The notes under the pieces: generated by a model
Seen by the model: only the letters and a program-made list of their open reading frames with translations
Databases searched by the model: none
What the model was told of the DNA's origin: nothing
Shown: in pieces, positions 1 to 18,284 of the stretch
Numbering within the stretch: the stretch's first letter is position 1
Layout: the number at the start of each line of letters is the position of its first letter
NCBI RefSeq assembly: GCF_020144665.1
Contig: NZ_JAAHBQ010000073.1
Coordinates: forward strand, 1 to 35,646
Length of the DNA: 35,646 nt
Direction: 5' to 3'
DNA from: Oscillatoria salina IIICB1
Lineage (GTDB): Bacteria > Cyanobacteriota > Cyanobacteriia > Cyanobacteriales > SIO1D9
Program-made: the position numbers and the translations under genes

Positions 1-23
1 GGGGGGGTGGGGGAGCCTTACGG

Positions 24-2071
24 GTTTCCATTAATTCAACTTCCGAAGAAGTCAGAAGTGTAAGCAAGTTTGCGAGGTTGACCCAACAACTGGACAGGGT
101 TTCCATTAATTCAACTTCCGAAGAAGTCAGAAGCTTAGGTCAGGGGCCTTCCCCTGCTGATGACGGTTTCCATTAATTCAACTTCCGAAGAAGTCAGAAG
201 AATTAAAAGAGTCAGCTGAAAAAAAAGCTGCAATTCTGGTTTCCATTAATTCAACTTCCGAAGAAGTCAGAAGACGCTTCCCAAGAGGAGGCCAAGAAGG
301 CCTGGGAGGGTTTCCATTAATTCAACTTCCGAAGAAGTCAGAAGACCGGAATAACTGCTTGCAGGCGGGGGCAATATGGTTTCCATTAATTCAACTTCCG
401 AAGAAGTCAGAAGCGCCAGGAGCAGCCTGCTCCTCAGCCGCGGTGTAACGTTTCCATTAATTCAACTTCCGAAGAAGTCAGAAGGTGTCGAAAAAACATT
501 CAAGCAACTTTTTTCAGCTCTTCATGTTTCCATTAATTCAACTTCCGAAGAAGTCAGAAGAAAAAACTTGGAGCCATACCTGGCAAATTATACCGGTTTC
601 CATTAATTCAACTTCCGAAGAAGTCAGAAGTGATGGCTATAGCTGGAAACAGCGTTCAAGCCCCCTCGGTTTCCATTAATTCAACTTCCGAAGAAGTCAG
701 AAGGACGTTACGACGTACTACGGCTGTCCCCCGGACACGTTTCCATTAATTCAACTTCCGAAGAAGTCAGAAGCAATCATCGAGGTTGCACAGGCTCGTG
801 TCCCATTGGACATCGTTTCCATTAATTCAACTTCCGAAGAAGTCAGAAGTATCCTATCCCGAGTACCCTCAGTTAGGGCACTCCACGTTTCCATTAATTC
901 AACTTCCGAAGAAGTCAGAAGTTTTTTCCTGGATGCTGCGGATCCCGGGAAGATTCTAGCAGTTTCCATTAATTCAACTTCCGAAGAAGTCAGAAGACAT
1001 CCAGGTCCGTTCTGATGATTCAGGGAAATAGTTTCCATTAATTCAACTTCCGAAGAAGTCAGAAGTGCCAAAAGTTAAAAAGGGTTACCAACCTAGCTGG
1101 TACGTTTCCATTAATTCAACTTCCGAAGAAGTCAGAAGGAGGAGAATATGATGGGCACATGTTGCTTATCGGGTTTCCATTAATTCAACTTCCGAAGAAG
1201 TCAGAAGCTGCGAGAACATCACTTGGAAACGAGACGGCCAGCGGGTTTCCATTAATTCAACTTCCGAAGAAGTCAGAAGTTGTGGTTTAGGGAGCTAAGC
1301 TGCTCCCTTACTAGTTTCCATTAATTCAACTTCCGAAGAAGTCAGAAGTTTCCTAAATGCTAACAATGCCAAGATTTTGGCCGTTGTTTCCATTAATTCA
1401 ACTTCCGAAGAAGTCAGAAGAAAATCACTATGAACGATTGGGTTTTCTTTAAAAAAAAGTTTCCATTAATTCAACTTCCGAAGAAGTCAGAAGCCTTCCC
1501 TCCCCGTCTCCAAGACGAGGGCCAGGTCCAGTTTCCATTAATTCAACTTCCGAAGAAGTCAGAAGACGTTTTGGCCCAGGAAACTGGCGCTACCACTACA
1601 GAATGTTTCCATTAATTCAACTTCCGAAGAAGTCAGAAGCTCATAACCCCTCGCGGTACCGAAATAGTTGACCGTGTTTCCATTAATTCAACTTCCGAAG
1701 AAGTCAGAAGATTCAAGCATTACTGGGGACCGAGACCCCAGTTCAGGAACGTTTCCATTAATTCAACTTCCGAAGAAGTCAGAAGCACGACTACATACTG
1801 GGGCTGTCCCCCGGACACAAGAGTTTCCATTAATTCAACTTCCGAAGAAGTCAGAAGATGATAACAACGCTGAAATTTTGGCTGTTGCCTATTGTTTCCA
1901 TTAATTCAACTTCCGAAGAAGTCAGAAGGTATCACCATTTATCGCGGATGCCCACCGGACACGGTTTCCATTAATTCAACTTCCGAAGAAGTCAGAAGCG
2001 TCGCACATTACCATAATGGGTCGTGGCGGATCGATTGTTTCCATTAATTCAACTTCCGAAGAAGTCAGAAG
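24..2071 (-). CRISPR. CRISPR array, 29 repeats of 35 bp, 28 complete spacers, transcribed leftward
   Basis: Read on the plus strand, each repeat starts GTTTCCATTAATTCAAC and ends GAAGAAGTCAGAAG. All copies look identical, with starts from 24, 99, 166 and so on to 2037. Spacers are 32-41 bp. Bases 1-23 look like the end of a further spacer, so the array continues beyond the left edge. Transcription from the minus strand is inferred from three things: a promoter at 2103-2132; the repeat stem ACTTC-TTCG-GAAGT, whose loop is a cUUCGg tetraloop only in minus-strand RNA; and the minus-strand repeat end ATGGAAAC, which resembles common crRNA 5' handles. On this reading the spacer at 1999-2036 is the newest. 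No cas gene lies in the window, so the subtype cannot be assigned. Spacer content is described in the findings. Confidence 0.98.
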
Positions 2072-2270
2072 AGGGTCGATCTAGAACCCGCTTACTGAGA
2101 GGATTATAACCTAGTAAAATTCCGGGGGTCAAGTCAGTAGCCGAGTAATTGAGAATTAGTGTCATTAATTGTCTCACTTGAAAGCTTGAAAGTCATACAC
2201 TGACTGGGGTTGGTAGCACTCGACGCAAGAATGGGCATTTCAGCGATTCTTAGACTCCCTCGAAAATGAG
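2072..2270 (-). promoter_or_regulatory. CRISPR leader region
   Basis: This non-coding stretch adjoins the terminal repeat on the side of the promoter, where the leader of a leftward-transcribed array must lie. It contains the promoter at 2103-2132 and a tandem octamer duplication (CTTGAAAG twice, 2177-2192). The octamer could be a recognition site for adaptation proteins, but that is only a guess from position. I see no convincing open frame here. Confidence 0.6.
2103..2132 (-). promoter_or_regulatory. Predicted sigma70-type promoter driving the CRISPR array
   Basis: On the minus strand a -35 element TTGACC (2132-2127) is separated by 18 bases from a consensus -10 TATAAT (2108-2103). The predicted start, near 2096, lies about 25 bases before the first repeat, so the primary transcript would enter the array almost at once. 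The match to consensus and the position argue that this is the leader promoter. There has been no experimental check. Confidence 0.7.
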
Positions 2271-6815: not shown

Positions 6816-9800
6816 TTACCAGGGACTACCAATCATGGTGAAGGCACTCCAGTAATAAGGATGATTTAGTTGTTTATCGCCGACAACAGTTAAACTAGAG
6901 GGTAAATCAAAACTTTGCTCTCCGGTAATTAATTTTCCTCCTTCTAACTTAACTTGACCTTGAATCATGGCTAATTGGGCTTGTCGCAGTGCTTCTGCTT
7001 TAATTGGGGCTTGTTGTAATTGTTGATAGAAGGTTGTCATTAGACCGAGCGTACCTTCGTCGCTGACATACCAGAGGCTACCTAATGCTGATTTTACACC
7101 AGCTTGGACGGCAAAACCTGCAAATCCTAATTCGGCTTCGCGATCGCCAACTGCGGTTCGACAAGCACTTAATACTAATAATTCCACTATCGGGTTACTT
7201 AATTCTAACTGACGCAATTTGGTTAGTTCTAATTTGCGCTCCCAAAATTGCACGTAAGAATTACTCGGTTCTCCTGCTTTAAATTCGCCATGAGTTGCTA
7301 AATGAATTATACCATAAGCTGCTGAATTTCGCGCGGTTTTTAAGTTTTTTTCAGTAAATTCTTCATTCAAAAAATAGCGCCCTTGCCATAAATTTCCGGC
7401 AATCAATTGTAACTCTATGGGAACCGCAGGTAAAGGGCTTTGGTCGCTAAATTCACTTGCTCCCATTGCTAATACTTGCATTTGCTTGAGATTGCGGTAA
7501 TTTGTATTAGCTAAACTCAAACTGGGCATTAAGCCGACGCTGTATTTTTCTACTACAAATTGATTGCCGTTGTGGAGTGCAGCCACAGGTAAAGAACGCA
7601 AGCCTTCATCCATAATAAAGGCAATATTATTAATTTCTTGTGCCGCTAAATCTGCTTCAACGGGGGCAATTAACCACTGATATAATTGTTGTGCTGATTC
7701 CAGGTAGGGACGGCGCTGCCGGACATCGGTGACTCCCCGACGAAAGCTGTTTGCTACTTCGATGAGTTTGGCTTTGGTGACTCCTGGAACTTGTTTGCGA
7801 ATGGTTTGATTTTGGGGGGTTACTAAGATTAATTCTAGGGTGATTTCTTCTGGTTTCCTAATAGTTCCTTTTACGGTCGGGGGAACAAAAACTACATAAA
7901 GTAAGGCGGGTTTGGTTCCGGTTTGCTGGGCGACATTGGCTAAGATTTTTCCGGCTTCGTCGGTGTTGACTTGGGGGACTTCTTCTAAGCCTAAATAAGT
8001 GGTAAATGTGTCGGTGAAGTTGGTTTCTATTTCTTGTAAGCTGACGCTGGGGATAGTTGCTGTTGTGGCTATTTGATTAATTTGTGGAAGTATTTCTTCT
8101 GCTGCGGTTTCGCTAACTTCTGTTTCTTCTGGTATTTGGCTAATGTCGGTGGGTGCAAATGAGGTTTCGTTGGCTGTAAAAGGTGTTTCTCCTGTTAGTT
8201 GGTTGCTTGAGGTTTCGGTTATTAATGGTTGGATGATTGATGGTTGCGGTGTGGGTTCTATTTCTGGGGTTTCAGCTCTGGGAGGGGCTTCTACTCCGAT
8301 TAAGCCAATATTACCTCGCTGAATGGTGTAGGGGAAAATTTCGCCGAGTTGCAAGGTTGATGTGCCACTGGTGATGATTCCGGCTGTGCCGTTTGTGCTA
8401 GAATCGCCGATGATGAAGGGTATGTCTCCTTCTGCGCCGTGTCTGATGATAATATTGCCGTTACCGTTACTGCCAATTGTGGAGATACTACTATTGTTCC
8501 CGTGGCGATCGCGAAAACTTCCGGTGGCGCGAAAATATCTCCCGGCGGTTATATCTACTTCTCCCCCTTGACCGGCTGTGCCTCCTTGGGCGTTAATAAA
8601 GGTAACTTCGATATCGGCGATCGGATCGAGAAAGACGTTACCTGCATTCCCTACAGTTGCACTACTGTCTATTTCTCCGGTTTGAATGGCGATAAGGGCG
8701 TTGACAAAGATCTCTCCCCCTGTGGTTCCCGATGTGGTTAAATTCTCTGTGGTTACTATACCTTCACTGCTGCTAAGGTTGAGACTTCCTCCGGTGGTGA
8801 TGATGTCGGCTGTGGTTACGTCTCCAATGGCATTTAGGTTGACGCTACCCCCAGATGTGGCGGTTATGGTGTCCGTGGCGGTGATGTTTCCCCCAGATGT
8901 AGCGTTGATGTTTTGGGCGGTTATTCCTGCTGTTGAGAGGTCATTTGTACTGTTTAGCCTTAAGTTAGCGAGGGCAAATTTTTGACCCCAATACCTCCCC
9001 AAGGATATTTTACCATTGCCCGCCGAAATTGTCAAGTCATAATTTTCCTGGGCAGCGCTGTCGAGAATGTTGGTAAAGTTAAGATCGCCGTTGCTAGTAG
9101 TAATGAAGAGATCGTTATTGATAATTATCTCATGGTCGTAATTTTGTGCGTTGATGGTGGTGACGTTACCGTTAAGTTGAGTTGTGCCGCCGCCGCCGAT
9201 GTTCAAGCTGGTCGCGTTGATGGTACTGTTAAATACAGTGGTGCCGTTGTTGTTAATTCTCAGGTTGCCTAAGTTTTGACTATTTCCGACGCTATCTGTA
9301 AAGGTAATATTTCCCGTTCCCGCGTTGATTGTTAAGGATGAGTTACCGTTGAGAGTACCATTAAAGTTGACGTTACCACCGTCGCTGACGAGGAGAGGGT
9401 TGTTGACGATGAGGGTATTTCCTTGAAAATTTAAGTCTTGGTTGGTGGTAGTTAGGTTAGCGTGAAGACTGATATCACCGATAAAAGTTACAGAAGCATT
9501 ATCGACAGCAAGAAGATCGCCTTGAATGAGAATCGAACCAAGAGGAGATTGAATCGTTACCGGATCGGAAAAGACGAGATTATCGTTACCAACGGTAATT
9601 GTACCATTTCCCTCTGCCGATCCGATCGCTATATTCGCAAACCCATCGACTAAATTAGCAATTTCGCTTCCACTTAAGTCTAATTCCCCGGTTACACTTC
9701 CAATTCCGATTTGGCTAGATTCGTTAATTGGGGCTATATTCAGCGTACCATTTCCGGCGACATTACTATTCAATTCGAGATCGGTTGCGCGAAAGTTGAT

Positions 9801-12800
9801 ATCGTCAGCAACATTAATACTTCCGGTGGTTGACAAAATACCGTTACTGATGATGTTGAAATTTCCCCCAATTTCTGCTTCACCGAGATTAGTATTGGTA
9901 GCGTTGACTAAGTTAACATTTCCCAGAGTAGTGAGATTAATTGTACCGCTAGCATTTAAGTTATCGAGAGTGATATCTCCGGTGGTGGTAAAGCTACTGG
10001 TTTGGTTAAAGCTGACGATACCACTATCGGTAATCGTCCCCACCGCAGTAAGATTAAGACTACCAGTAAGATTAGTTTCACCCAAATCGAGATTGTTGCG
10101 ATCGCTGAGGGTAAGATTATTCGCATTCGTAACAACTACCGTGCTAAAGTCGTGACTGTTATCGAGAATAATATCCCCAGTGGTAGCGAAAGTGACAATT
10201 CCGGGGACGATAACAATACCACTATTAGTAATAGTCCCATTCGCGGTAACATCTAAAGTACCTGCGATATTGAGATTATTCAAATCAAGATTGTCAATAT
10301 CGTTAAGAATGACATTATTAGCGTTAGCGATCGCCACACTATTCAAGTTATGCTGATTATCGAGGATGAGATCGTTTCCCCCAGTCGCGAAACTTGCTAA
10401 ACCTGCGACATTTACCACCCCACTAGCGGTAATTATCCCATTTGCAGTAATTCCCAAATTCCCAGAAACATCCACATTTCCTAAATCTAGCTGATTAATA
10501 TCGTTGAGGATAACATTATTCGCGCCGAGGATAGCTACCGTATTAAAATCATGGTCATTATCGAGAATGATATCATTGTCATTCGCATTCAAAGTCGTAA
10601 TTCCACCAATAACCAAATTAGCGCTATCGGTTATTGTCCCACCTGCGGTGACATCTAGATTCCCGGTAAGGTTAATTTCTTCTAACTCTAAACTATCTGG
10701 GTCATTTAACACCAGATTATTTGCACTAACAATAGTTACCGAAGTCAAATCGCTTGGTTCCAGGAGAATAATATCATTACCATTAGCATCTAGGGTAGTT
10801 GTACCGAGAATGTTCAACTCTCCACTATTGGTAATTATGCCATTCGCGGTGACATTGAGATTCTCATCGAGATTAATATTTCCCAAGTCTAAGTCATCGA
10901 TATCGTTGAGGATAACATTTCCCGCGCTAATTACTGAGACGGTATTGAAGTCGTTATCGTTATCGAGAGTAATATCGTTACCCGTCACATCTATATTAGT
11001 AACACCCGCGACAGTTACTATCCCAATATCGCTAAGGAAACCATTTGTGGTGATATCTAGGTTTCCCGTTATGTTAGTCTCTCCCAACTGTAAGTCATTG
11101 ATGTCGTTGAGAATGACATCTTGAGCATTGTTGAGAGCGATCGCGTTAAAATTATTCTGGTTATCGAGAGTAATATCATTCCCAGTTGTATCTATATTAG
11201 TAACACCCGCGACAGTTACTATACCAATATCGCTAAGGAAACCATTTGTGGTGATATCTAGGTTTCCCGTTATGTTAGTCTCTCCCAACTGTAAGTCATT
11301 GATGTCGTTGAGAATGACATCTTGAGAATTAGCGATCGCGATCGCGTTAAAATTATTCTGGTTATCGAGAGTAATATCGTTACCCGTCACATCTATATTA
11401 GTAACACCCGCGACGGTGACTATACCAATATCGCTAAGGAAACCATTTGTGGTGATATCTAGGTTTCCCGTTATGTTAGTTTCTCCCAACTGTAAGTCAT
11501 TGATGTCGTTGAGAATGACATCTTGAGAATTAGCGATCGCGATCGCGTTAAAATTATTCTGGTTATCGAGAGTAATATCGTTACCCGTCACATCTATATT
11601 AGTAATACCCGCGACAGTTACTACCCCAATATCGCTAAGGAAACCATTTGTGGTGATATCTAGGTTTCCCGTTATGTTAGTCTCTCCCAACTGTAAGTCA
11701 TTGATGTCGTTGAGAATGACATCGTTAGCATTGGTTATCGCAATAATATTGAAGTCGTTATCGTTATCGAGAGTAATATCATTCCCCGTTGTATCTATAT
11801 TAGTAATACCCGCGACGGTGACTATACCAATATCGCTAAGGAAACCATTTGTAGTGATATCTAGGTTTCCCGTTATATTAGTGTCTCCCAACTGTAAGTC
11901 ATTGATGTCGTTGAGAATGACATCTTGAGCATTGTTGAGAGCGATCGCGTTAAAATTATTCTGGTTATCGAGAGTAATATCGTTACCCGTCACATCTATA
12001 TTAGTAATACCCGCGACAGTTACTATACCAATATCGCTAAGGAAACCATTTGTGGTGATATCTAGGTTTCCCGTTATATTAGTGTCTCCCAACTGTAAGT
12101 CATTGATGTCGTTGAGAATGACATCGTTAGCATTGGTTATTCCAACAATATTGAAGTCGTTATCGTTATCGAGAGTAATATCATTCCCCGTTGTATCTAT
12201 ATTAGTAACACCCGCGACAGTTAAGATCCCAATATCGCTAAGGAAACCATTCGTCGTCACCTGAAAATCACCCGCAACATCAATATCTCCCAACTCTAAC
12301 TCATCACTGTCATTCAAAATCACATCTTCAGTGCTAGTCAAGAAAACCGTGCTAAAGTTATGCTGATTATCCAGGAGAATACTACCAGCAGCATCAATAT
12401 TCGTATTCCCCAAAATATTCAAGCTACCGCTATCGGTAACATTCCCACCAACAGTAAGCAATAACGTCCCATTAATGTTACTATCGCCTAAGTCTAAGTT
12501 ATTAACCTCATTGAGAATAACATCCTCCGCGCTAATAACCGAAACAGTATTCAAATCATTCTCGTTATCAAGAATAATATCATTCCCCGTCGCATCCAAG
12601 CTAGTCACACCCGCAACCTGTAAGTCACCATTATCAGTAATTATTCCCTTCGCAGTAACATTCAAATCACCCGAAATATTTGACGCATCCAGAATAACCG
12701 CATCATTCTCGACAATCGTTACATTTTGTCCAATAATTTGCAAATTCCCAAACTGATTATTTGCGTTATCCAGAGTTATTTCTCCTGTGGGAGTTGCATC

Positions 12801-15800
12801 CAAAATCGTCACACCCGTCACATTCAAAGCCCCAGTTTGCGAGATCTTAGCTGGAGCGGTAATATTAGTTAAATTTGGTGTCGCTGTCGTAAAATTAACC
12901 GTACCACCGAAATTATTTTCCGCTTGATTTAAAGTAATCGCTTCACCCGCAAAAATGCCGTCAAATGCTTCCCCCGAAGCTAAACTATTAACCGTCAAAT
13001 CACCTGTAACTGTTTGCGAAGGTATCTCGACATTTCCCACACCGCTAACTACAACATCACCATTAGGAAATGTAAATACCGAAAAAATATTACTCGCATT
13101 TGGATCGAGATTAACCTGGGGTGCATCAATATCAATATCACCTGCAACTTGAATAACTCCCACTTGAGAAACATTACCTTCCGAGTCGATAGCTAAATCA
13201 CCACCGACAAAGATAGTCCCTAAAATTGTCTCCCCAGAATTCAACAAAAAGACACCGCCAGTATTAGCTAAACTGGTAGTAAAAGTAGCATCTCCACCGA
13301 CAGTTAAAACGCCGCTATCGGTAATCGCACCCGTGGAAGTAATCATCAAATTACCTGTAATATTAGCCAAACCTAACTCTGTCGGTGCATTTTCATTAAT
13401 ATTGACATTATTACCTGTAAGTTGCAGGATTCCAAATTGATTATTATTGTTGAGAATAATATCGCCAACGCCAGAATTTATCGTCGTTATTCCGGCAATA
13501 TTCAAGTTACCACTATCGGTAATAGTCCCCGCAGTAGTAAGATTTAAACTACCTGTAAGATTGGAATTACCCAAATCTAAATTATTGATATCGTTGAGGA
13601 TAACATTATTTCCTTGAACCAAAGCAACGGTGTTAAAATCATTCGCATTATCGAGGTTAATATTACTTCCAGAAAGAGTCGCAACACCCCCAACCAAGAC
13701 ATCTCCACTATCGGTAATGGCACCATTGGCGCTAAGATCTAAATTACCAGAAATAACAGAGGTAGTTAAATCGACGGCATCGTTTTCAGTAATAGCAACA
13801 TTTTGTCCGATAATAGCTAACGTACCAAATTGATTGTTAGCTTCGGTAAGAGTAATATCTCCTGCTGGTGTCGCATTTAAAGTAACATTCCCAGGAATTG
13901 TTTGTGGTGTTGTTTGCACAATACTGGGTGTAGCGGTGACATTATCGATATCAGAAGTAACTGTATTAATCCTAACTGTACCAGCGAAAGAATTACCGGG
14001 TTGGTCTAAAATAATGGCATCGCTATTAAAAACTTCTGTAAATTGTTCCCCAGCAACGAGACTATTAACGGTAAGATTGCCATTAATTGGGGTTTCGGGA
14101 ATAGCAACTTCCCCAACTCCGCTCACAATTACGTCACCGTTAGGTAAGGTAATAAAGGGGGTAACTGTATTACTAAATTCCAGGGTACCATCGGCAGCAT
14201 TAATAATTACTTCCCCTGCAACTTGAATCTCGCCATTTTGCGAAACTGTACCCTCAGAATTGACAATTAAGTTACCACCAATAATACTATCGCCGAAAAC
14301 TGTATCGCCGGAATTAGTGAAGGAAACATTGCCTAAATTAGCAGCCGTAGTTGTCAAGTTGGCTGTACCAGTTATAGTGAGATTACCACTATCGGTAATT
14401 GCTCCATCAGCAGTAAGATCGAGATTACCTTGAATGTTAGTTATGCGGAGATTAAGATTTGTGTTATTGCGTGCAAATAAGTCTCCGGCTACATTGGGTT
14501 GAAACTGATTAACTTGTAATTCTAAAGGATTGTTAATTGTTCCCACTGAACCTGTGGCATTAAGGTTTAAAATATTGCTAGTAATATCGAGTCCAGTTGG
14601 GGCGCTGCTAATTGCACCTGTATTCAGATTAAGCGTGCTATTATTGCCTAAAATAATGCCGTTATTAAAGGTAGTATCGCCGCCATTGATGGTAAGATTA
14701 GGCGTAATTGTGCTGAAATCTAGTTCTCCGGAAATTGTCACTGCACCCGTGCCGTTTGTCCTACCAATTGTGATGGAATTAAAGCCCGGCTGTATAGCAT
14801 TAATTTCCTGATTTGTCAAGGTCAAAGTATTAATTCCGGAATCATCTGTTGCGCCAAGATTGATATTTTGTCCGGGTGTTGCTGGTTGAATAATTAAGTC
14901 GTTATTGGAGGTGACAATTACGTCACCTCCTTCAAAAGAAATAAAGTCAATTTCGTTACCAATTAAAGTAATTGCTGCTTCATTAGTTAGGAGAGAATCT
15001 GTGAGAAGATTATTAGCAGCAGAGAGAGAAATTATGCCACCATTTCCCATGTCAGAACGAGCATCAATTACATAGGTGGTAACATTAGTACCAGCGTCAA
15101 TAGTAACTGCACCGCTATTAAGATTACCGCTAGATAAGATAATGTCGTTAACGTTGATAAAATCTAGGGCTGATAAAATTATTGTCCCACCAATACCAGT
15201 ATCGGAGTTAGAGAAAATAATATCAGTAGCGATAAATCCTCCAGCTTCAACGGTAACATTTCCTCCGTCGCCAGCCGGGGAACTAGAATCAACATTTAAG
15301 ATGGAAACATCGCCACCAGCAGTTAAGGAAATAATACCACCATCTGCATTACCAGCGATCGCCTGAGTAGCTCCGGAACTATTAAGATTGTCTGTGCTAA
15401 GATTACCACCAGCAGTGACAGAAATTGCACCTCCGGCACCACGTTCGGCGCTAGAATCAATATTAGCTGTAATAATATCGCCACCAGCAGTAACAGCTAT
15501 ATCTCCTGCATCGCCATCATCTCCTTTAATAGAGGAAATTTCTCCGGTAATAATATTACCTGTTGCTGTCAAATTTATTGCACCGGAATCTCCTTCAGCA
15601 GTAGAGTTAAGAATGGTACCATTGCTGTCAATATCGCCACCACTGGTAATAGTTAAGACTCCACCTACTGTAGAGATATCAGCATTAATATCGACTACAT
15701 CTCCAGCGTCTAAAGTCAAGTCGTTAGTAAATGTGCCGTCACCATCAGTAGTAATAATACCATTAGTAACAATTGTACCTCCAGGATTAGGCGATCGCAG

Positions 15801-18284
15801 CGTCGTCGGATTGTTAAACGCCACATCGTCAACTACAGTAATCGTACCGCTACCATCGGCACGTCCAATAATAACCGAGTTGAAACCAGGTTGAATTGTA
15901 GCCAACTCAGCAATGGTAAGATCGAGGCTAGCAATTCCTGCATCTCCTCCGTCACCGAGATTAATATCTTGTTCGGGTGTTACTGTCTGAATTAGCAGAG
16001 TAGCATCATTGCTGATAATATTATCGACTGGTAGAACACCTATACTATCAAGAACATTAAATTCATCAGCAGTAATATTGATATCTCCACCCTGATTCCC
16101 ACCAGTAGCAGTAATACCTGCTATATTAATCGTATCAGTAGCAATCAGTGCGATCGCGCCACCATTGCCAGTATCGGAACTAGAATCTAGAGCATTACCG
16201 TCGATAAAAAGAGCAGCAAGATCGGGATTGATTGTAATATTAGCACCAGAGTTAATAGCGATCGCGCCACCATCACCATCAGTAGAAATGGCGAAAACTG
16301 CTCCTAAGTTAATATTACCAGCCGTGGTAATTTCTATAGTTCCTGCATCACCATCAATCGCATTAGATACTACTTGAGTAATGACAAAATCGCCATTTTG
16401 ACTAATAATTGAAATATTGCCACCATTACCATCTACATCTGGAATTCCTAAACCACCACCACCAGCCCCATCATCTAAGGAACTAGCAACAACGGAATCT
16501 GTGGTAATATCACCACCAGCAGTAATAGTTATCGCTCCTCCATCATTATTATCAGACCTAGAATCAATAAGTCCTGTAGTAATATCACCACCAGCAGTAA
16601 GAGTAATTGCACCTCCAGGAAAACCACTACTGGTGTCGATAGTACCAACGGTGATATTTCCACCTGCTTCGATAGTAATATTTCTTCCTGCTGCTTCGAT
16701 GGTATCAACAATATTCATGGTAAAGTCACCAATACCATTATTATCAGCATCTGCTATAAAACTAATATCACCGCCAAAACCTTGAGTTGGAGCAAAAGTT
16801 AATATACCATCGGTTATATCGCCAATTGTAATATCATTAGTGGCTTCCAAAATTACATCAGCAGTATCAGGAAGTCCTTCTAAAGTTGCTGAGGAAATAG
16901 TGATTGGATTCCCGTTAAAATCAGCAGCTAAAATATCAGGTAAGGCGGCTGCAACTCCTGCGCTTTCTGGATCTGTATCATCAATAAGAATATCAGTCGG
17001 GTCTAATAATAATCTTCCCAAATTACCATTTACGGCACTCAAATCTACACTTCCAACAAAGATTAAATCTTCTTTCCCTGAGATTTCAACAAAGCCACCG
17101 TTACCGGAAATTACTCCACCACGAGCAGTAATATTACCGTAAAATCCTGTTACTTCATCCGCCCAAACTATGACTCTTCCACCATCACCTAAACTCAAAG
17201 CATTGGCGCTAATTGTTGAGTCATTGCTGACAAAAGTACGCAAGGCATTTGGTACAGTTCCCAAGCCTCGATAATCGCCGCCAATTCTAATATTACCGCC
17301 GCCAATTGTGCCGTCAGCGTTAATATTTGCGCCAATAATTCCTACTTTGGTTCCGAAAATATCGAGGTTGCCACCTAGGGAATTAGAGCCATCTAAACTA
17401 CCAGAAACGATCGCAGTTTCGCTAAGATTATGCGGCAAAATTACGTTAGAATTTGTTAATTGAACCGTACCATCGGGATTAACTGTTAAGCCAGTTTCCA
17501 CACCAGTACCTGTTAGTAATCTGGGCAAATCTAAGGGTGTAATTGGTAAATCTTGTCCGGTGTTATCCGTAGGAATTTCTATTTCTAAACTTAACAGTTG
17601 TCCGGCTTGAGAAATTCTCACTAAATTAGTTCCGGGGACGGCGGCAATGGTAATATTACCTCCGGGGGCGCTGAGAGTTCCGGTGTTAATTACGCTACCA
17701 CCAAGTAAGGTTAAATTACTATCTGGAGTGACGCTTAAGTCCCCAGCATTAATTATTACTCCTCCGGTGGCTAAATCAAAGGCGAATATGTTAGGATTAC
17801 CAACTAAATTTTGATATTCATTTGTCCCAAAAACCTGAAACCAATTATCTTCCCCAAAACCAACTCTTGTAGCGGTGGTTGCGAAGAAGTCTCCAGGAAC
17901 GTTTAATTGAGCGTCAGCGCCAAAAACAATCCCGGCGGGGTTAATTAAATAAAGGTTAGAATTGCCGCCGAGAACTTGAATTAAACCGTTAATTATGGAA
18001 GGATCTCCGCCGACTACTCTCCCTAAAATATTGCGAATTTCCGGGTGAGAAAGAAAGCTAGCAATTTGTTCGGAAGATAGTCCAAATTGCTCGAAACTGT
18101 GGAATAAATTAGTTCCGTCTCCGGACAAACTACCGCCTTCGATGTAAAATTCTTGACCATCAATACTGATAATTGTACCTGTACCGTCTGTGGCTGGAGT
18201 AATTGATTGAGCTAAAACAGGATTATTAGTGATTATTCCGATTAAGGAAAGTAAAGAGCAAAACTTCAACCACGATAGTTTCAT
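6816..18284 (-). CDS. Giant two-partner-secretion exoprotein (FHA N-domain, beta-helix repeats) with C-terminal CHAT protease domain, 3822 aa
   Basis: A signal peptide (1-26, ending VLAQ) leads into a filamentous-haemagglutinin/TPS domain with LYLINPAGIVFG around residue 115, the motif that marks TpsA substrates. About 3000 residues of Gly/Asn/Asp/Thr-rich beta-helix repeats follow, including near-identical 67-aa units at about 2011-2446. A Pro/Glu/Thr-rich linker (about 3330-3400) precedes a CHAT caspase-like domain with HLATHGEF (catalytic His3665) and LSACRTAVG (Cys3708), ending YYWSAFTMIGSPW. Family knowledge predicts export through a TpsB outer-membrane pore, but no TpsB gene is in the window. 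The protein is likely surface-exposed with a protease head. No frameshift is seen over 11.5 kb. Confidence 0.92.
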   Translation of the reverse strand: MKLSWLKFCSLLSLIGIITNNPVLAQSITPATDGTGTIISIDGQEFYIEGGSLSGDGTNLFHSFEQFGLSSEQIASFLSHPEIRNILGRVVGGDPSIINGLIQVLGGNSNLYLINPAGIVFGADAQLNVPGDFFATTATRVGFGEDNWFQVFGTNEYQNLVGNPNIFAFDLATGGVIINAGDLSVTPDSNLTLLGGSVINTGTLSAPGGNITIAAVPGTNLVRISQAGQLLSLEIEIPTDNTGQDLPITPLDLPRLLTGTGVETGLTVNPDGTVQLTNSNVILPHNLSETAIVSGSLDGSNSLGGNLDIFGTKVGIIGANINADGTIGGGNIRIGGDYRGLGTVPNALRTFVSNDSTISANALSLGDGGRVIVWADEVTGFYGNITARGGVISGNGGFVEISGKEDLIFVGSVDLSAVNGNLGRLLLDPTDILIDDTDPESAGVAAALPDILAADFNGNPITISSATLEGLPDTADVILEATNDITIGDITDGILTFAPTQGFGGDISFIADADNNGIGDFTMNIVDTIEAAGRNITIEAGGNITVGTIDTSSGFPGGAITLTAGGDITTGLIDSRSDNNDGGAITITAGGDITTDSVVASSLDDGAGGGGLGIPDVDGNGGNISIISQNGDFVITQVVSNAIDGDAGTIEITTAGNINLGAVFAISTDGDGGAIAINSGANITINPDLAALFIDGNALDSSSDTGNGGAIALIATDTINIAGITATGGNQGGDINITADEFNVLDSIGVLPVDNIISNDATLLIQTVTPEQDINLGDGGDAGIASLDLTIAELATIQPGFNSVIIGRADGSGTITVVDDVAFNNPTTLRSPNPGGTIVTNGIITTDGDGTFTNDLTLDAGDVVDINADISTVGGVLTITSGGDIDSNGTILNSTAEGDSGAINLTATGNIITGEISSIKGDDGDAGDIAVTAGGDIITANIDSSAERGAGGAISVTAGGNLSTDNLNSSGATQAIAGNADGGIISLTAGGDVSILNVDSSSPAGDGGNVTVEAGGFIATDIIFSNSDTGIGGTIILSALDFINVNDIILSSGNLNSGAVTIDAGTNVTTYVIDARSDMGNGGIISLSAANNLLTDSLLTNEAAITLIGNEIDFISFEGGDVIVTSNNDLIIQPATPGQNINLGATDDSGINTLTLTNQEINAIQPGFNSITIGRTNGTGAVTISGELDFSTITPNLTINGGDTTFNNGIILGNNSTLNLNTGAISSAPTGLDITSNILNLNATGSVGTINNPLELQVNQFQPNVAGDLFARNNTNLNLRITNIQGNLDLTADGAITDSGNLTITGTANLTTTAANLGNVSFTNSGDTVFGDSIIGGNLIVNSEGTVSQNGEIQVAGEVIINAADGTLEFSNTVTPFITLPNGDVIVSGVGEVAIPETPINGNLTVNSLVAGEQFTEVFNSDAIILDQPGNSFAGTVRINTVTSDIDNVTATPSIVQTTPQTIPGNVTLNATPAGDITLTEANNQFGTLAIIGQNVAITENDAVDLTTSVISGNLDLSANGAITDSGDVLVGGVATLSGSNINLDNANDFNTVALVQGNNVILNDINNLDLGNSNLTGSLNLTTAGTITDSGNLNIAGITTINSGVGDIILNNNNQFGILQLTGNNVNINENAPTELGLANITGNLMITSTGAITDSGVLTVGGDATFTTSLANTGGVFLLNSGETILGTIFVGGDLAIDSEGNVSQVGVIQVAGDIDIDAPQVNLDPNASNIFSVFTFPNGDVVVSGVGNVEIPSQTVTGDLTVNSLASGEAFDGIFAGEAITLNQAENNFGGTVNFTTATPNLTNITAPAKISQTGALNVTGVTILDATPTGEITLDNANNQFGNLQIIGQNVTIVENDAVILDASNISGDLNVTAKGIITDNGDLQVAGVTSLDATGNDIILDNENDLNTVSVISAEDVILNEVNNLDLGDSNINGTLLLTVGGNVTDSGSLNILGNTNIDAAGSILLDNQHNFSTVFLTSTEDVILNDSDELELGDIDVAGDFQVTTNGFLSDIGILTVAGVTNIDTTGNDITLDNDNDFNIVGITNANDVILNDINDLQLGDTNITGNLDITTNGFLSDIGIVTVAGITNIDVTGNDITLDNQNNFNAIALNNAQDVILNDINDLQLGDTNITGNLDITTNGFLSDIGIVTVAGITNIDTTGNDITLDNDNDFNIIAITNANDVILNDINDLQLGETNITGNLDITTNGFLSDIGVVTVAGITNIDVTGNDITLDNQNNFNAIAIANSQDVILNDINDLQLGETNITGNLDITTNGFLSDIGIVTVAGVTNIDVTGNDITLDNQNNFNAIAIANSQDVILNDINDLQLGETNITGNLDITTNGFLSDIGIVTVAGVTNIDTTGNDITLDNQNNFNAIALNNAQDVILNDINDLQLGETNITGNLDITTNGFLSDIGIVTVAGVTNIDVTGNDITLDNDNDFNTVSVISAGNVILNDIDDLDLGNINLDENLNVTANGIITNSGELNILGTTTLDANGNDIILLEPSDLTSVTIVSANNLVLNDPDSLELEEINLTGNLDVTAGGTITDSANLVIGGITTLNANDNDIILDNDHDFNTVAILGANNVILNDINQLDLGNVDVSGNLGITANGIITASGVVNVAGLASFATGGNDLILDNQHNLNSVAIANANNVILNDIDNLDLNNLNIAGTLDVTANGTITNSGIVIVPGIVTFATTGDIILDNSHDFSTVVVTNANNLTLSDRNNLDLGETNLTGSLNLTAVGTITDSGIVSFNQTSSFTTTGDITLDNLNASGTINLTTLGNVNLVNATNTNLGEAEIGGNFNIISNGILSTTGSINVADDINFRATDLELNSNVAGNGTLNIAPINESSQIGIGSVTGELDLSGSEIANLVDGFANIAIGSAEGNGTITVGNDNLVFSDPVTIQSPLGSILIQGDLLAVDNASVTFIGDISLHANLTTTNQDLNFQGNTLIVNNPLLVSDGGNVNFNGTLNGNSSLTINAGTGNITFTDSVGNSQNLGNLRINNNGTTVFNSTINATSLNIGGGGTTQLNGNVTTINAQNYDHEIIINNDLFITTSNGDLNFTNILDSAAQENYDLTISAGNGKISLGRYWGQKFALANLRLNSTNDLSTAGITAQNINATSGGNITATDTITATSGGSVNLNAIGDVTTADIITTGGSLNLSSSEGIVTTENLTTSGTTGGEIFVNALIAIQTGEIDSSATVGNAGNVFLDPIADIEVTFINAQGGTAGQGGEVDITAGRYFRATGSFRDRHGNNSSISTIGSNGNGNIIIRHGAEGDIPFIIGDSSTNGTAGIITSGTSTLQLGEIFPYTIQRGNIGLIGVEAPPRAETPEIEPTPQPSIIQPLITETSSNQLTGETPFTANETSFAPTDISQIPEETEVSETAAEEILPQINQIATTATIPSVSLQEIETNFTDTFTTYLGLEEVPQVNTDEAGKILANVAQQTGTKPALLYVVFVPPTVKGTIRKPEEITLELILVTPQNQTIRKQVPGVTKAKLIEVANSFRRGVTDVRQRRPYLESAQQLYQWLIAPVEADLAAQEINNIAFIMDEGLRSLPVAALHNGNQFVVEKYSVGLMPSLSLANTNYRNLKQMQVLAMGASEFSDQSPLPAVPIELQLIAGNLWQGRYFLNEEFTEKNLKTARNSAAYGIIHLATHGEFKAGEPSNSYVQFWERKLELTKLRQLELSNPIVELLVLSACRTAVGDREAELGFAGFAVQAGVKSALGSLWYVSDEGTLGLMTTFYQQLQQAPIKAEALRQAQLAMIQGQVKLEGGKLITGEQSFDLPSSLTVVGDKQLNHPYYWSAFTMIGSPW
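10945..12251 (-). repeat. About 6.5 near-identical 201-bp tandem repeats inside the exoprotein gene
   Basis: The marker GTGATATCTAGGTTTCCCG recurs at 11050, 11251, 11452, 11653, 11854 (one nearby change) and 12055, exactly 201 bp apart. Each unit encodes 67 residues containing GNLDITTNGFLSDIG and VILNDINDLQLG. Identity is much higher than between the flanking degenerate repeats, which points to recent unequal crossover or gene conversion. Some copies carry the double HIP1 string GCGATCGCGATCGCG while others have replaced it, so variants are shuffled between copies. Confidence 0.95.

What the first reader, a model, noticed from the sequence alone, without database searches (positions are those of the whole stretch)
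704..1963. Three spacers encode the same conserved viral peptide, GCPPDT
Read in one frame on the plus strand, spacer 704-738 gives DVTTYYGCPPDT (the last codon's third base lies outside the spacer), spacer 1786-1822 gives TTTYWGCPPDTR and spacer 1929-1963 gives ITIYRGCPPDT. The codons differ, mostly at third positions (for example GGC TGT CCC CCG against GGA TGC CCA CCG), and the ends are offset by one to five bases. They are therefore separate acquisitions from homologous but diverged genes, not copies of one spacer. The protein segment is under purifying selection, and this organism or its ancestors met members of that viral family at least three times.
Basis: partly seen in the sequence, partly recalled or inferred. 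Interest (0 to 1): 0.85.

Follow-up and report, generated by a model that had tools for sequence, protein, structure and literature searches.

The report
CRISPR spacers tiling one hidden gene
A cyanobacterium's RNA-linked CRISPR arrays hold at least 33 independently captured DNA snippets that, once translated, fit together as pieces of one short, strongly conserved protein gene from a parasite found in no DNA database searched here, possibly an undiscovered RNA virus.

Summary
The three GCPPDT spacers are real and are the tip of a larger pattern. The array (window 24-2071; 29 identical repeats, 28 spacers) is one of four in this genome that share repeat and leader. The genome carries a type III-B CRISPR locus with a reverse transcriptase-Cas1 fusion. 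Across the 217 complete spacers of these arrays, 33 (11 in the window) tile three peptide blocks that probably form one short ORF: [IIEVAQARVPLDIQVRSELGKKYVFFLNANDSEILAVAYYQSGSWRISY], [SYPEYPQLGYSTVTGDRDPSSG] and [SESSTTTYYGCPPDTATVTQECN-stop]. Differences fall at codon positions 1/2/3 as 68/59/198: saturated synonymous change under purifying selection. 32 of 33 read as coding strand, so their crRNAs are antisense to the mRNA, as type III requires. None of 256 spacers from the genome's other arrays (144 from two type I-D systems) belongs. The RT-linked spacers have 50% GC against 38% in the other arrays and about 40% in host DNA. No target was found in phage, plasmid, viral-contig or genome collections. 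Best reading: recurrent RT-linked memory of transcripts from one gene of a fast-diverging, unsampled parasite. An RNA virus or replicon is the leading but unproven source.

The parts
24..2071 (-). CRISPR array: 29 identical 35-nt repeats (GTTTCCATTAATTCAACTTCCGAAGAAGTCAGAAG as read on +), 28 complete spacers; crRNA strand is minus
   Evidence: The reverse-complement repeat ends ...TTAATGGAAAC (xxxGAAAC handle typical of this class) and the conserved leader lies at the right end.
2072..2247 (-). leader, next to the newest spacer
   Evidence: 176 nt aligns at 82-89% identity to the sequence next to the last repeat of the other three arrays.
704..738 (+). spacer rank 19, block C: DVTTYYGCPPD(T)
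   Evidence: leave-one-out score 59; control maximum 30
1786..1822 (+). spacer rank 4, block C: TTTYWGCPPDTR
   Evidence: leave-one-out 59
1929..1963 (+). spacer rank 2, block C: ITIYRGCPPDT
   Evidence: leave-one-out 48
774..814 (+). spacer rank 18, block A: IIEVAQARVPLDI
   Evidence: leave-one-out 35
850..886 (+). spacer rank 17, block B: SYPEYPQLGHS
   Evidence: leave-one-out 42
922..961 (+). spacer rank 16, block A: FFLDAADPGKILA
   Evidence: leave-one-out 29, marginal alone; profile 25.6 bits
997..1030 (+). spacer rank 15, block A: IQVRSDDSGK
   Evidence: leave-one-out 24, weak alone; profile 17.4 bits
1349..1385 (+). spacer rank 10, block A: FLNANNAKILAV
   Evidence: leave-one-out 37
1711..1750 (+). 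spacer rank 5, block B: SSITGDRDPSSG; shares a 33-nt identical run, with a CTGGGG..CCCCAG inverted repeat, with L021:2802
   Evidence: leave-one-out 55
1858..1893 (+). spacer rank 3, block A: DNNAEILAVAY
   Evidence: leave-one-out 37
1999..2036 (+). spacer rank 1 (newest), block A: VAHYHNGSWRID
   Evidence: leave-one-out 48
1139..1172 (+). spacer of another recurrent peptide family: GEYDGHMLLI (partner L021:3527 GQYDGHMILI)
   Evidence: score 50; codon-position differences 2/0/7

Best explanation
The window array is part of the spacer memory of an RT-Cas1 type III-B CRISPR-Cas system in a cyanobacterium. Inferred process: the system repeatedly captured pieces of the transcripts of one short protein gene, probably about 90-120 codons, from many highly diverged relatives of one extrachromosomal parasite. 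Reverse transcription by RT-Cas1 followed by integration is the likely route. The arrays are transcribed from the right-hand leader, so the crRNAs are antisense to that gene's mRNA. The Cmr complex could then bind the parasite RNA, cut it and trigger its Cas10/Csx1 response. Holding many overlapping but synonymously different guides to one gene would blunt escape by silent mutation. Shown here: the spacer tiling, codon signature, orientation, recency, absence from the RT-less arrays, and the cas genes. Inferred: RNA as the captured molecule, interference, and that blocks A, B and C are one ORF. Most likely source: an unsampled RNA virus or small RNA replicon (about 0.5); next, a highly expressed gene of an unsampled DNA phage or plasmid (about 0.38).
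For: RT-Cas1 fusion (PF00078 63-269, PF01867 328-614) with Cas10b, Cmr3, Cmr4, Cmr5, Cmr6-like and CARF-HEPN genes near arrays with the same repeat. 33 of 217 spacers from four arrays form blocks A (20), B (6) and C (7). Leave-one-out: 28 of 33 score at least 31, while the maximum among 256 RT-less spacers and 133 spacers from relatives is 30. Profile search shows a clear gap between members and everything else. Differences by codon position 68/59/198, 75% residue identity. Orientation 32 sense to 1 (p about 8e-9). 0 of 144 type I-D spacers belong (p about 2e-8) and 0 of 256 in all RT-less arrays (p about 2e-12). Spacer GC 0.50 versus 0.38-0.39, p about 1e-28, with host DNA 0.40-0.41. Members are leader-proximal: 7 of 7 within ranks 1-13 of 87 in L021 (p 3e-7); 11 of 11 within ranks 1-19 of 86 if the window and the C29 end are one array (p 3e-9). 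At least ten further small families also read on the sense strand with third-position differences 17/14/51. No copy in the host genome outside arrays.
Against: No target sequence has been found, so no protospacer, flank or genome type is known. Joining A, B and C into one ORF rests on very short overlaps and shared recency; the two N-terminal pieces (L015:7884, L014:1747) are singletons. Spacers of the control type I-D array L061 also have no phage match, so a missing match does not itself mark an RNA source. Hitting one short ORF so heavily is unusual for a 3-4 kb RNA phage, and no RdRp motif was noticed by eye among the spacer translations. Orientation bias can come from selection rather than RNA capture. 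The hairpin excess is modest (mean z -0.71 versus -0.36).
Confidence: 0.8

Rival explanations
1. The source is an RNA virus or small RNA replicon (RNA phage, or viroid/Obelisk-like element) of this cyanobacterium, captured through reverse transcription by RT-Cas1.
For: RT-Cas1; no match in the DNA collections searched; absent from all RT-less arrays; distinct 50% GC pool; saturated synonymous divergence among spacers in one genome; some excess of hairpins. About 33 of 71 spacers in the leader-proximal zones fall in about 330 nt; if sampling were even, that would imply a source well under 1.5 kb (inference). Published precedent: 63 spacers matching Obelisks (PMC13096302) and RT type III spacers used to assign riboviruses to bacteria (cited in PMC10847044).
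Against: No RdRp, coat or Oblin homology detected (Pfam and PHROGs negative; Oblin not tested). RNA virus collections are not searchable here.
Confidence: 0.5
2. The source is a highly transcribed short gene (for example capsid or early gene) of an unsampled DNA phage or plasmid; type III immunity acts on its transcripts and favours antisense guides to abundant mRNA.
For: Type III-B systems can act against DNA phages in a transcription-dependent way, and RT-Cas1 acquires from RNA and DNA (PMC5576922). Focus on one short ORF fits an abundant transcript. Most spacers of any kind lack matches.
Against: The two type I-D arrays of the same genome hold no spacer against it (0 of 144); GC of the pool differs strongly; no hit in 50,697 phage records, 72,556 plasmids, 2.9 million IMG/VR contigs or GTDB contigs.
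Confidence: 0.38
3. The spacers derive from transcripts of a cellular gene family of neighbouring bacteria or eukaryotes.
For: RT-Cas1 can capture host transcripts in the Marinomonas system (PMC5576922).
Against: No homologue in the own genome, in 390 genomes of the class, or in genome contigs at the sensitivity used; captured cellular RNA would not be expected to concentrate on one gene or keep one orientation.
Confidence: 0.07
4. Chance peptide resemblance or frame-picking artefact in short spacers.
For: Spacers are only 30-45 nt and six frames were tried; five members are marginal taken alone (24-29).
Against: Shuffled sets give 0-1 pairs scoring at least 40 versus 34 observed; 256 control spacers never exceed 30; third-position excess; one consistent strand.
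Confidence: 0.01

Closest known systems
RT-Cas1 type III-B CRISPR-Cas of Arthrospira platensis (Silas et al. 2017, PMC5513706)
   Same: Cyanobacterial III-B locus with RT-Cas1 plus a separate cas1; spacers with almost no identifiable source, distinct from those of a co-resident RT-less system.
   Different: There the search was reported as nucleotide alignment plus a few translated read matches; here the RT-linked spacers themselves converge on one peptide set, so part of the hidden source can be read without a database match.
Marinomonas mediterranea RT-Cas1 type III-B (PMC5576922)
   Same: RT-Cas1 III-B adaptation and interference modules.
   Different: New spacers there came in nearly random orientation; here 32 of 33 retained family spacers are in the functional antisense-crRNA orientation.
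Synechococcus hot-spring spacers against a lysozyme gene (Heidelberg et al. 2009, PMC2612747)
   Same: Silent and conservative variation around a CRISPR-targeted viral coding site.
   Different: There variation was seen in virome reads around a few spacers; here it is seen among many spacers of one genome, with no target sequence.
Obelisks and other circular RNA replicons matched by CRISPR spacers (PMC13096302)
   Same: Possible small RNA source recorded by bacterial CRISPR arrays.
   Different: No sequence link was shown or testable here; the similarity is only the inferred small target size.

Membership tests
RT-Cas1 type III-B CRISPR-Cas | Reverse transcriptase domain fused to Cas1 | tested here: met
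   L014:7315-9297(-), RVT_1 63-269 E 3e-34, Cas_Cas1 328-614 E 1.5e-90; best PADLOC model Cas1_IIIb
RT-Cas1 type III-B CRISPR-Cas | Cas10b and Cmr effector genes | tested here: met
   Cas10b, Cmr3, Cmr4, Cmr5, Cmr6-like, CARF-HEPN on the same contig
RT-Cas1 type III-B CRISPR-Cas | Array next to RT-Cas1 with the window's repeat | tested here: met
   L014:9528-13749 starts about 230 bases from the RT-Cas1 ORF and has the identical repeat
RT-Cas1 type III-B CRISPR-Cas | Window array physically continuous with that array | tested here: inconclusive
   C29 ends inside a leaderless array and C73 starts inside an array with a leader; same repeat, no joining read
RT-Cas1 type III-B CRISPR-Cas | Spacers acquired from RNA | not testable with these tools
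   Needs acquisition assays with RT mutants
Known phage or viral protein family (PHROGs, Pfam) | Sequence match of the tiled peptide | tested here: not met
   tblastn of phages
RNA bacteriophage (Leviviricetes and others) | Pfam or PHROG match of the tiled peptide | tested here: not met
   No Pfam or PHROG family significant; an RdRp ORF was not looked for systematically
RNA bacteriophage (Leviviricetes and others) | Match in RNA viromes | not testable with these tools
   No RNA virome collection is on hand
Obelisk / viroid-like RNA replicon | Oblin homology, circular rod-like ~1 kb RNA | not testable with these tools
   No Oblin model or genome; mosaic peptides cannot be folded here

The most novel reading that the evidence does not exclude
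The RT-linked arrays record an undiscovered RNA virus or small RNA replicon of a cyanobacterium, and a stretch of its protein can be read directly from the spacers. Comparing translated RT-CRISPR spacers with each other would then be a general, database-free way to uncover the unknown sources of RT-CRISPR spacers.
Probability: 0.45. Interest if true: 0.95.

Novelty: new variant of a known kind. Interest (0 to 1): 0.78.

Why it matters
What RT-Cas1 CRISPR arrays remember has been called enigmatic: millions of Arthrospira spacers gave a single RT-associated match (PMC5513706). Here the RT-linked spacers of one genome converge on one protein once translated, while the genome's RT-less arrays do not. 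That gives a specific probe (a protein profile of about 90 residues) for finding the hidden source, shows why nucleotide searches fail (saturated synonymous divergence), and makes orientation control and RNA versus DNA capture testable in a named locus.

Tried and rejected
DNA pattern for YxGCPPDT in IMG/VR: three hits, all in short frames with nearby stops, judged chance. DNA pattern for YDGHM..I: one chance hit. Patterns for HIHGDxVCP, the 21-nt conserved hairpin and AYxQxGxWRI: none. A1 and A2 alignments in viral and genome contigs: pattern hits but no tblastn support; A1 patterns were poorly placed in the singly covered N-terminus. Four arrays versus phages by blastn: mostly E 0.1-10; the best match (E 1e-3, Arthrobacter phages) is to Pro/Ala/Gln-rich repeats. 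Arrays with related repeats in other genomes of the order: 133 spacers, no family member. PDB, Pfam and PHROG hits at E 0.16-1.5 are chance. Structure prediction was not run: the mosaic peptide is not a sequence of the window or its loci, which the tool does not accept. Open-frame asymmetry across all RT spacers is not significant (57 versus 49), so sense orientation is shown only for the recurrent families. L014:1231 and L014:785 look like remote block A members by eye but did not pass the profile and are not counted.

Full report
OBSERVATION. The window starts inside a CRISPR array. 29 identical 35-nt repeats span 24-2071 and enclose 28 spacers. Their pairwise scores (54, 48, 47) exceed the best pair in each of five shuffled spacer sets (27-32).

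DIRECTION. The repeat read on the minus strand ends in TTAATGGAAAC, the usual form of a crRNA handle. The 176 bases right of the last repeat are 82-89% identical to the sequence beside the corresponding repeat of three other arrays of the genome, with no such similarity at the far end of the L021 array. The leader is therefore on the right, spacer 1999-2036 is the newest, and crRNAs come from the minus strand. A coding sequence read on the plus strand is thus the mRNA sense of a target whose crRNA is antisense.

THE SYSTEM. The genome (5.96 Mb, 163 contigs) has about 228 such repeats, in the window contig C73 and contigs C29, C99 and C113. C29 carries an RT-Cas1 fusion, two separate cas1 genes close by, Cas10b, Cmr3, Cmr4, Cmr5, a Cmr6-like protein and a CARF-HEPN protein. 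One array lies next to RT-Cas1 and runs off the end of C29 without a leader; the window array has a leader but no far end. They are probably one array split by the assembly, but this was not proven. Three further arrays with other repeats (54, 90 and 112 spacers) serve as controls. Two of them sit beside type I-D genes; the third has a cas1 beside it and its subtype is unresolved.

THE TILING. Comparing all spacers with each other at the peptide level gave 34 pairs scoring 40 or more, against 0-1 in shuffled sets, mostly on the plus strand. These are mosaics of different spacers, not one observed protein. Scored only against the other members, 28 of 33 reach 31 or more, whereas 256 RT-less spacers and 133 spacers from relatives never exceed 30. 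Profiles separate members from all other spacers by a wide gap, although members trained the profiles. Overlapping pairs differ at codon positions 1/2/3 as 68/59/198 with 264 of 354 residues identical (computed on a 35-spacer list that includes the two N-terminal singletons, which contribute no pair). That is the signature of real coding sequence with saturated silent change. One member, L021:3452, fits better on the minus strand (37.2 versus 18.0 bits) and is nearly palindromic; the other 32 are sense. At least ten further small families (for example EHIHGDHVCP, YDGHMLLI, DRTQxAINN, CAEANSA) also read on the sense strand with third-position differences 17/14/51.

A SEPARATE SOURCE. No RT-less spacer belongs to the set (0 of 256; type I-D alone 0 of 144). 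RT-linked spacers have mean GC 0.50, the RT-less ones 0.38-0.39 and host DNA 0.40-0.41. RT-linked spacers fold somewhat more stably than shuffled versions, more so than controls, but the effect is modest. Members sit near the leader: all 7 in L021 lie within ranks 1-13 of 87, and the 58 older spacers on the C29 end contain none. The parasite therefore seems to be a recent and repeated encounter.

THE TARGET IS MISSING. No credible match came from the own genome, 390 genomes of the class, 40 relatives, phage and plasmid records, PHROGs, Pfam, PDB, IMG/VR contigs or GTDB contigs. Searches used a mosaic query and short patterns, so remote homologues could be missed, and no RNA virome could be searched. 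The type I-D array L061 also has no phage match.

INTERPRETATION. The firm part is that the RT-linked III-B arrays repeatedly sampled one short coding sequence, or a few neighbouring ones, from diverged members of one parasite family, and kept almost only the orientation that yields working guides. In the Marinomonas RT-Cas1 system, orientation of new spacers was close to random (PMC5576922); the 32:1 record here therefore implies either selection for spacers that worked or an orienting mechanism. The inferred part is the nature of the source. RT-Cas1, absence from the DNA collections and from the RT-less arrays, the distinct base composition and the small apparent target favour an RNA virus or small RNA replicon (about 0.5). 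A highly expressed gene of an unsampled DNA element remains a serious rival (about 0.38).

COMPARISON WITH WHAT IS KNOWN. RT-linked spacer repertoires of Arthrospira were reported as enigmatic, with one match among millions (PMC5513706). Silent variation around CRISPR targets was seen in Synechococcus viromes (PMC2612747). Obelisk-matching spacers have been reported (PMC13096302). In the open-access papers searched I did not find a case where RT-linked spacers of one genome were shown to tile one protein by translation alone; subscription literature and preprints were not searched.

Noticed in passing
window 1-23 and contig C29 end (L014:13749-13766): The window begins with a G-run and a partial spacer; C29 ends inside a leaderless array of the same repeat, suggesting one array of about 88 repeats broken by the assembly.
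   Followed up: partly
L014:9836, L014:11075, L014:11941, L021:5266, L021:6563: A second recurrent peptide family, EHIHGD[HY]VCP(Q/K)GHE, confined to older spacers of the RT-linked arrays; no hit in IMG/VR or phages.
   Followed up: partly
L021:4392, L015:8687, L021:6419, L021:4685, L021:5770: Older RT-linked spacers encode Pro/Asn/Gln-rich low-complexity peptides (NPNPNPNQPN, CEIYRQPPQQQ), suggesting further unknown source proteins.
   Followed up: no
window 1280-1313, 1711-1750; L014:11292; L021:5841; L021:8065: Several RT-linked spacers are near-perfect inverted repeats (for example AACTAGTCCCCTCGGACTAGTT), as if structured RNA had been captured; on average the fold excess is modest.
   Followed up: partly
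L060:55-8891 (contig C49): A 113-repeat array with a cas1 beside it and unresolved subtype; a few of its spacers also pair at peptide level (KLIDxYGxGDW, WETxTRRN).
   Followed up: no
window 6816-18284 (-): A 3822-aa ORF with many 201-bp repeats (67 residues), probably a large repetitive surface or adhesin-like protein.
   Followed up: no
L022:18281-18632: Short tandem repeats encoding (VENEIIVWRFFAQNDM)n between the Cmr genes and a cas1.
   Followed up: no
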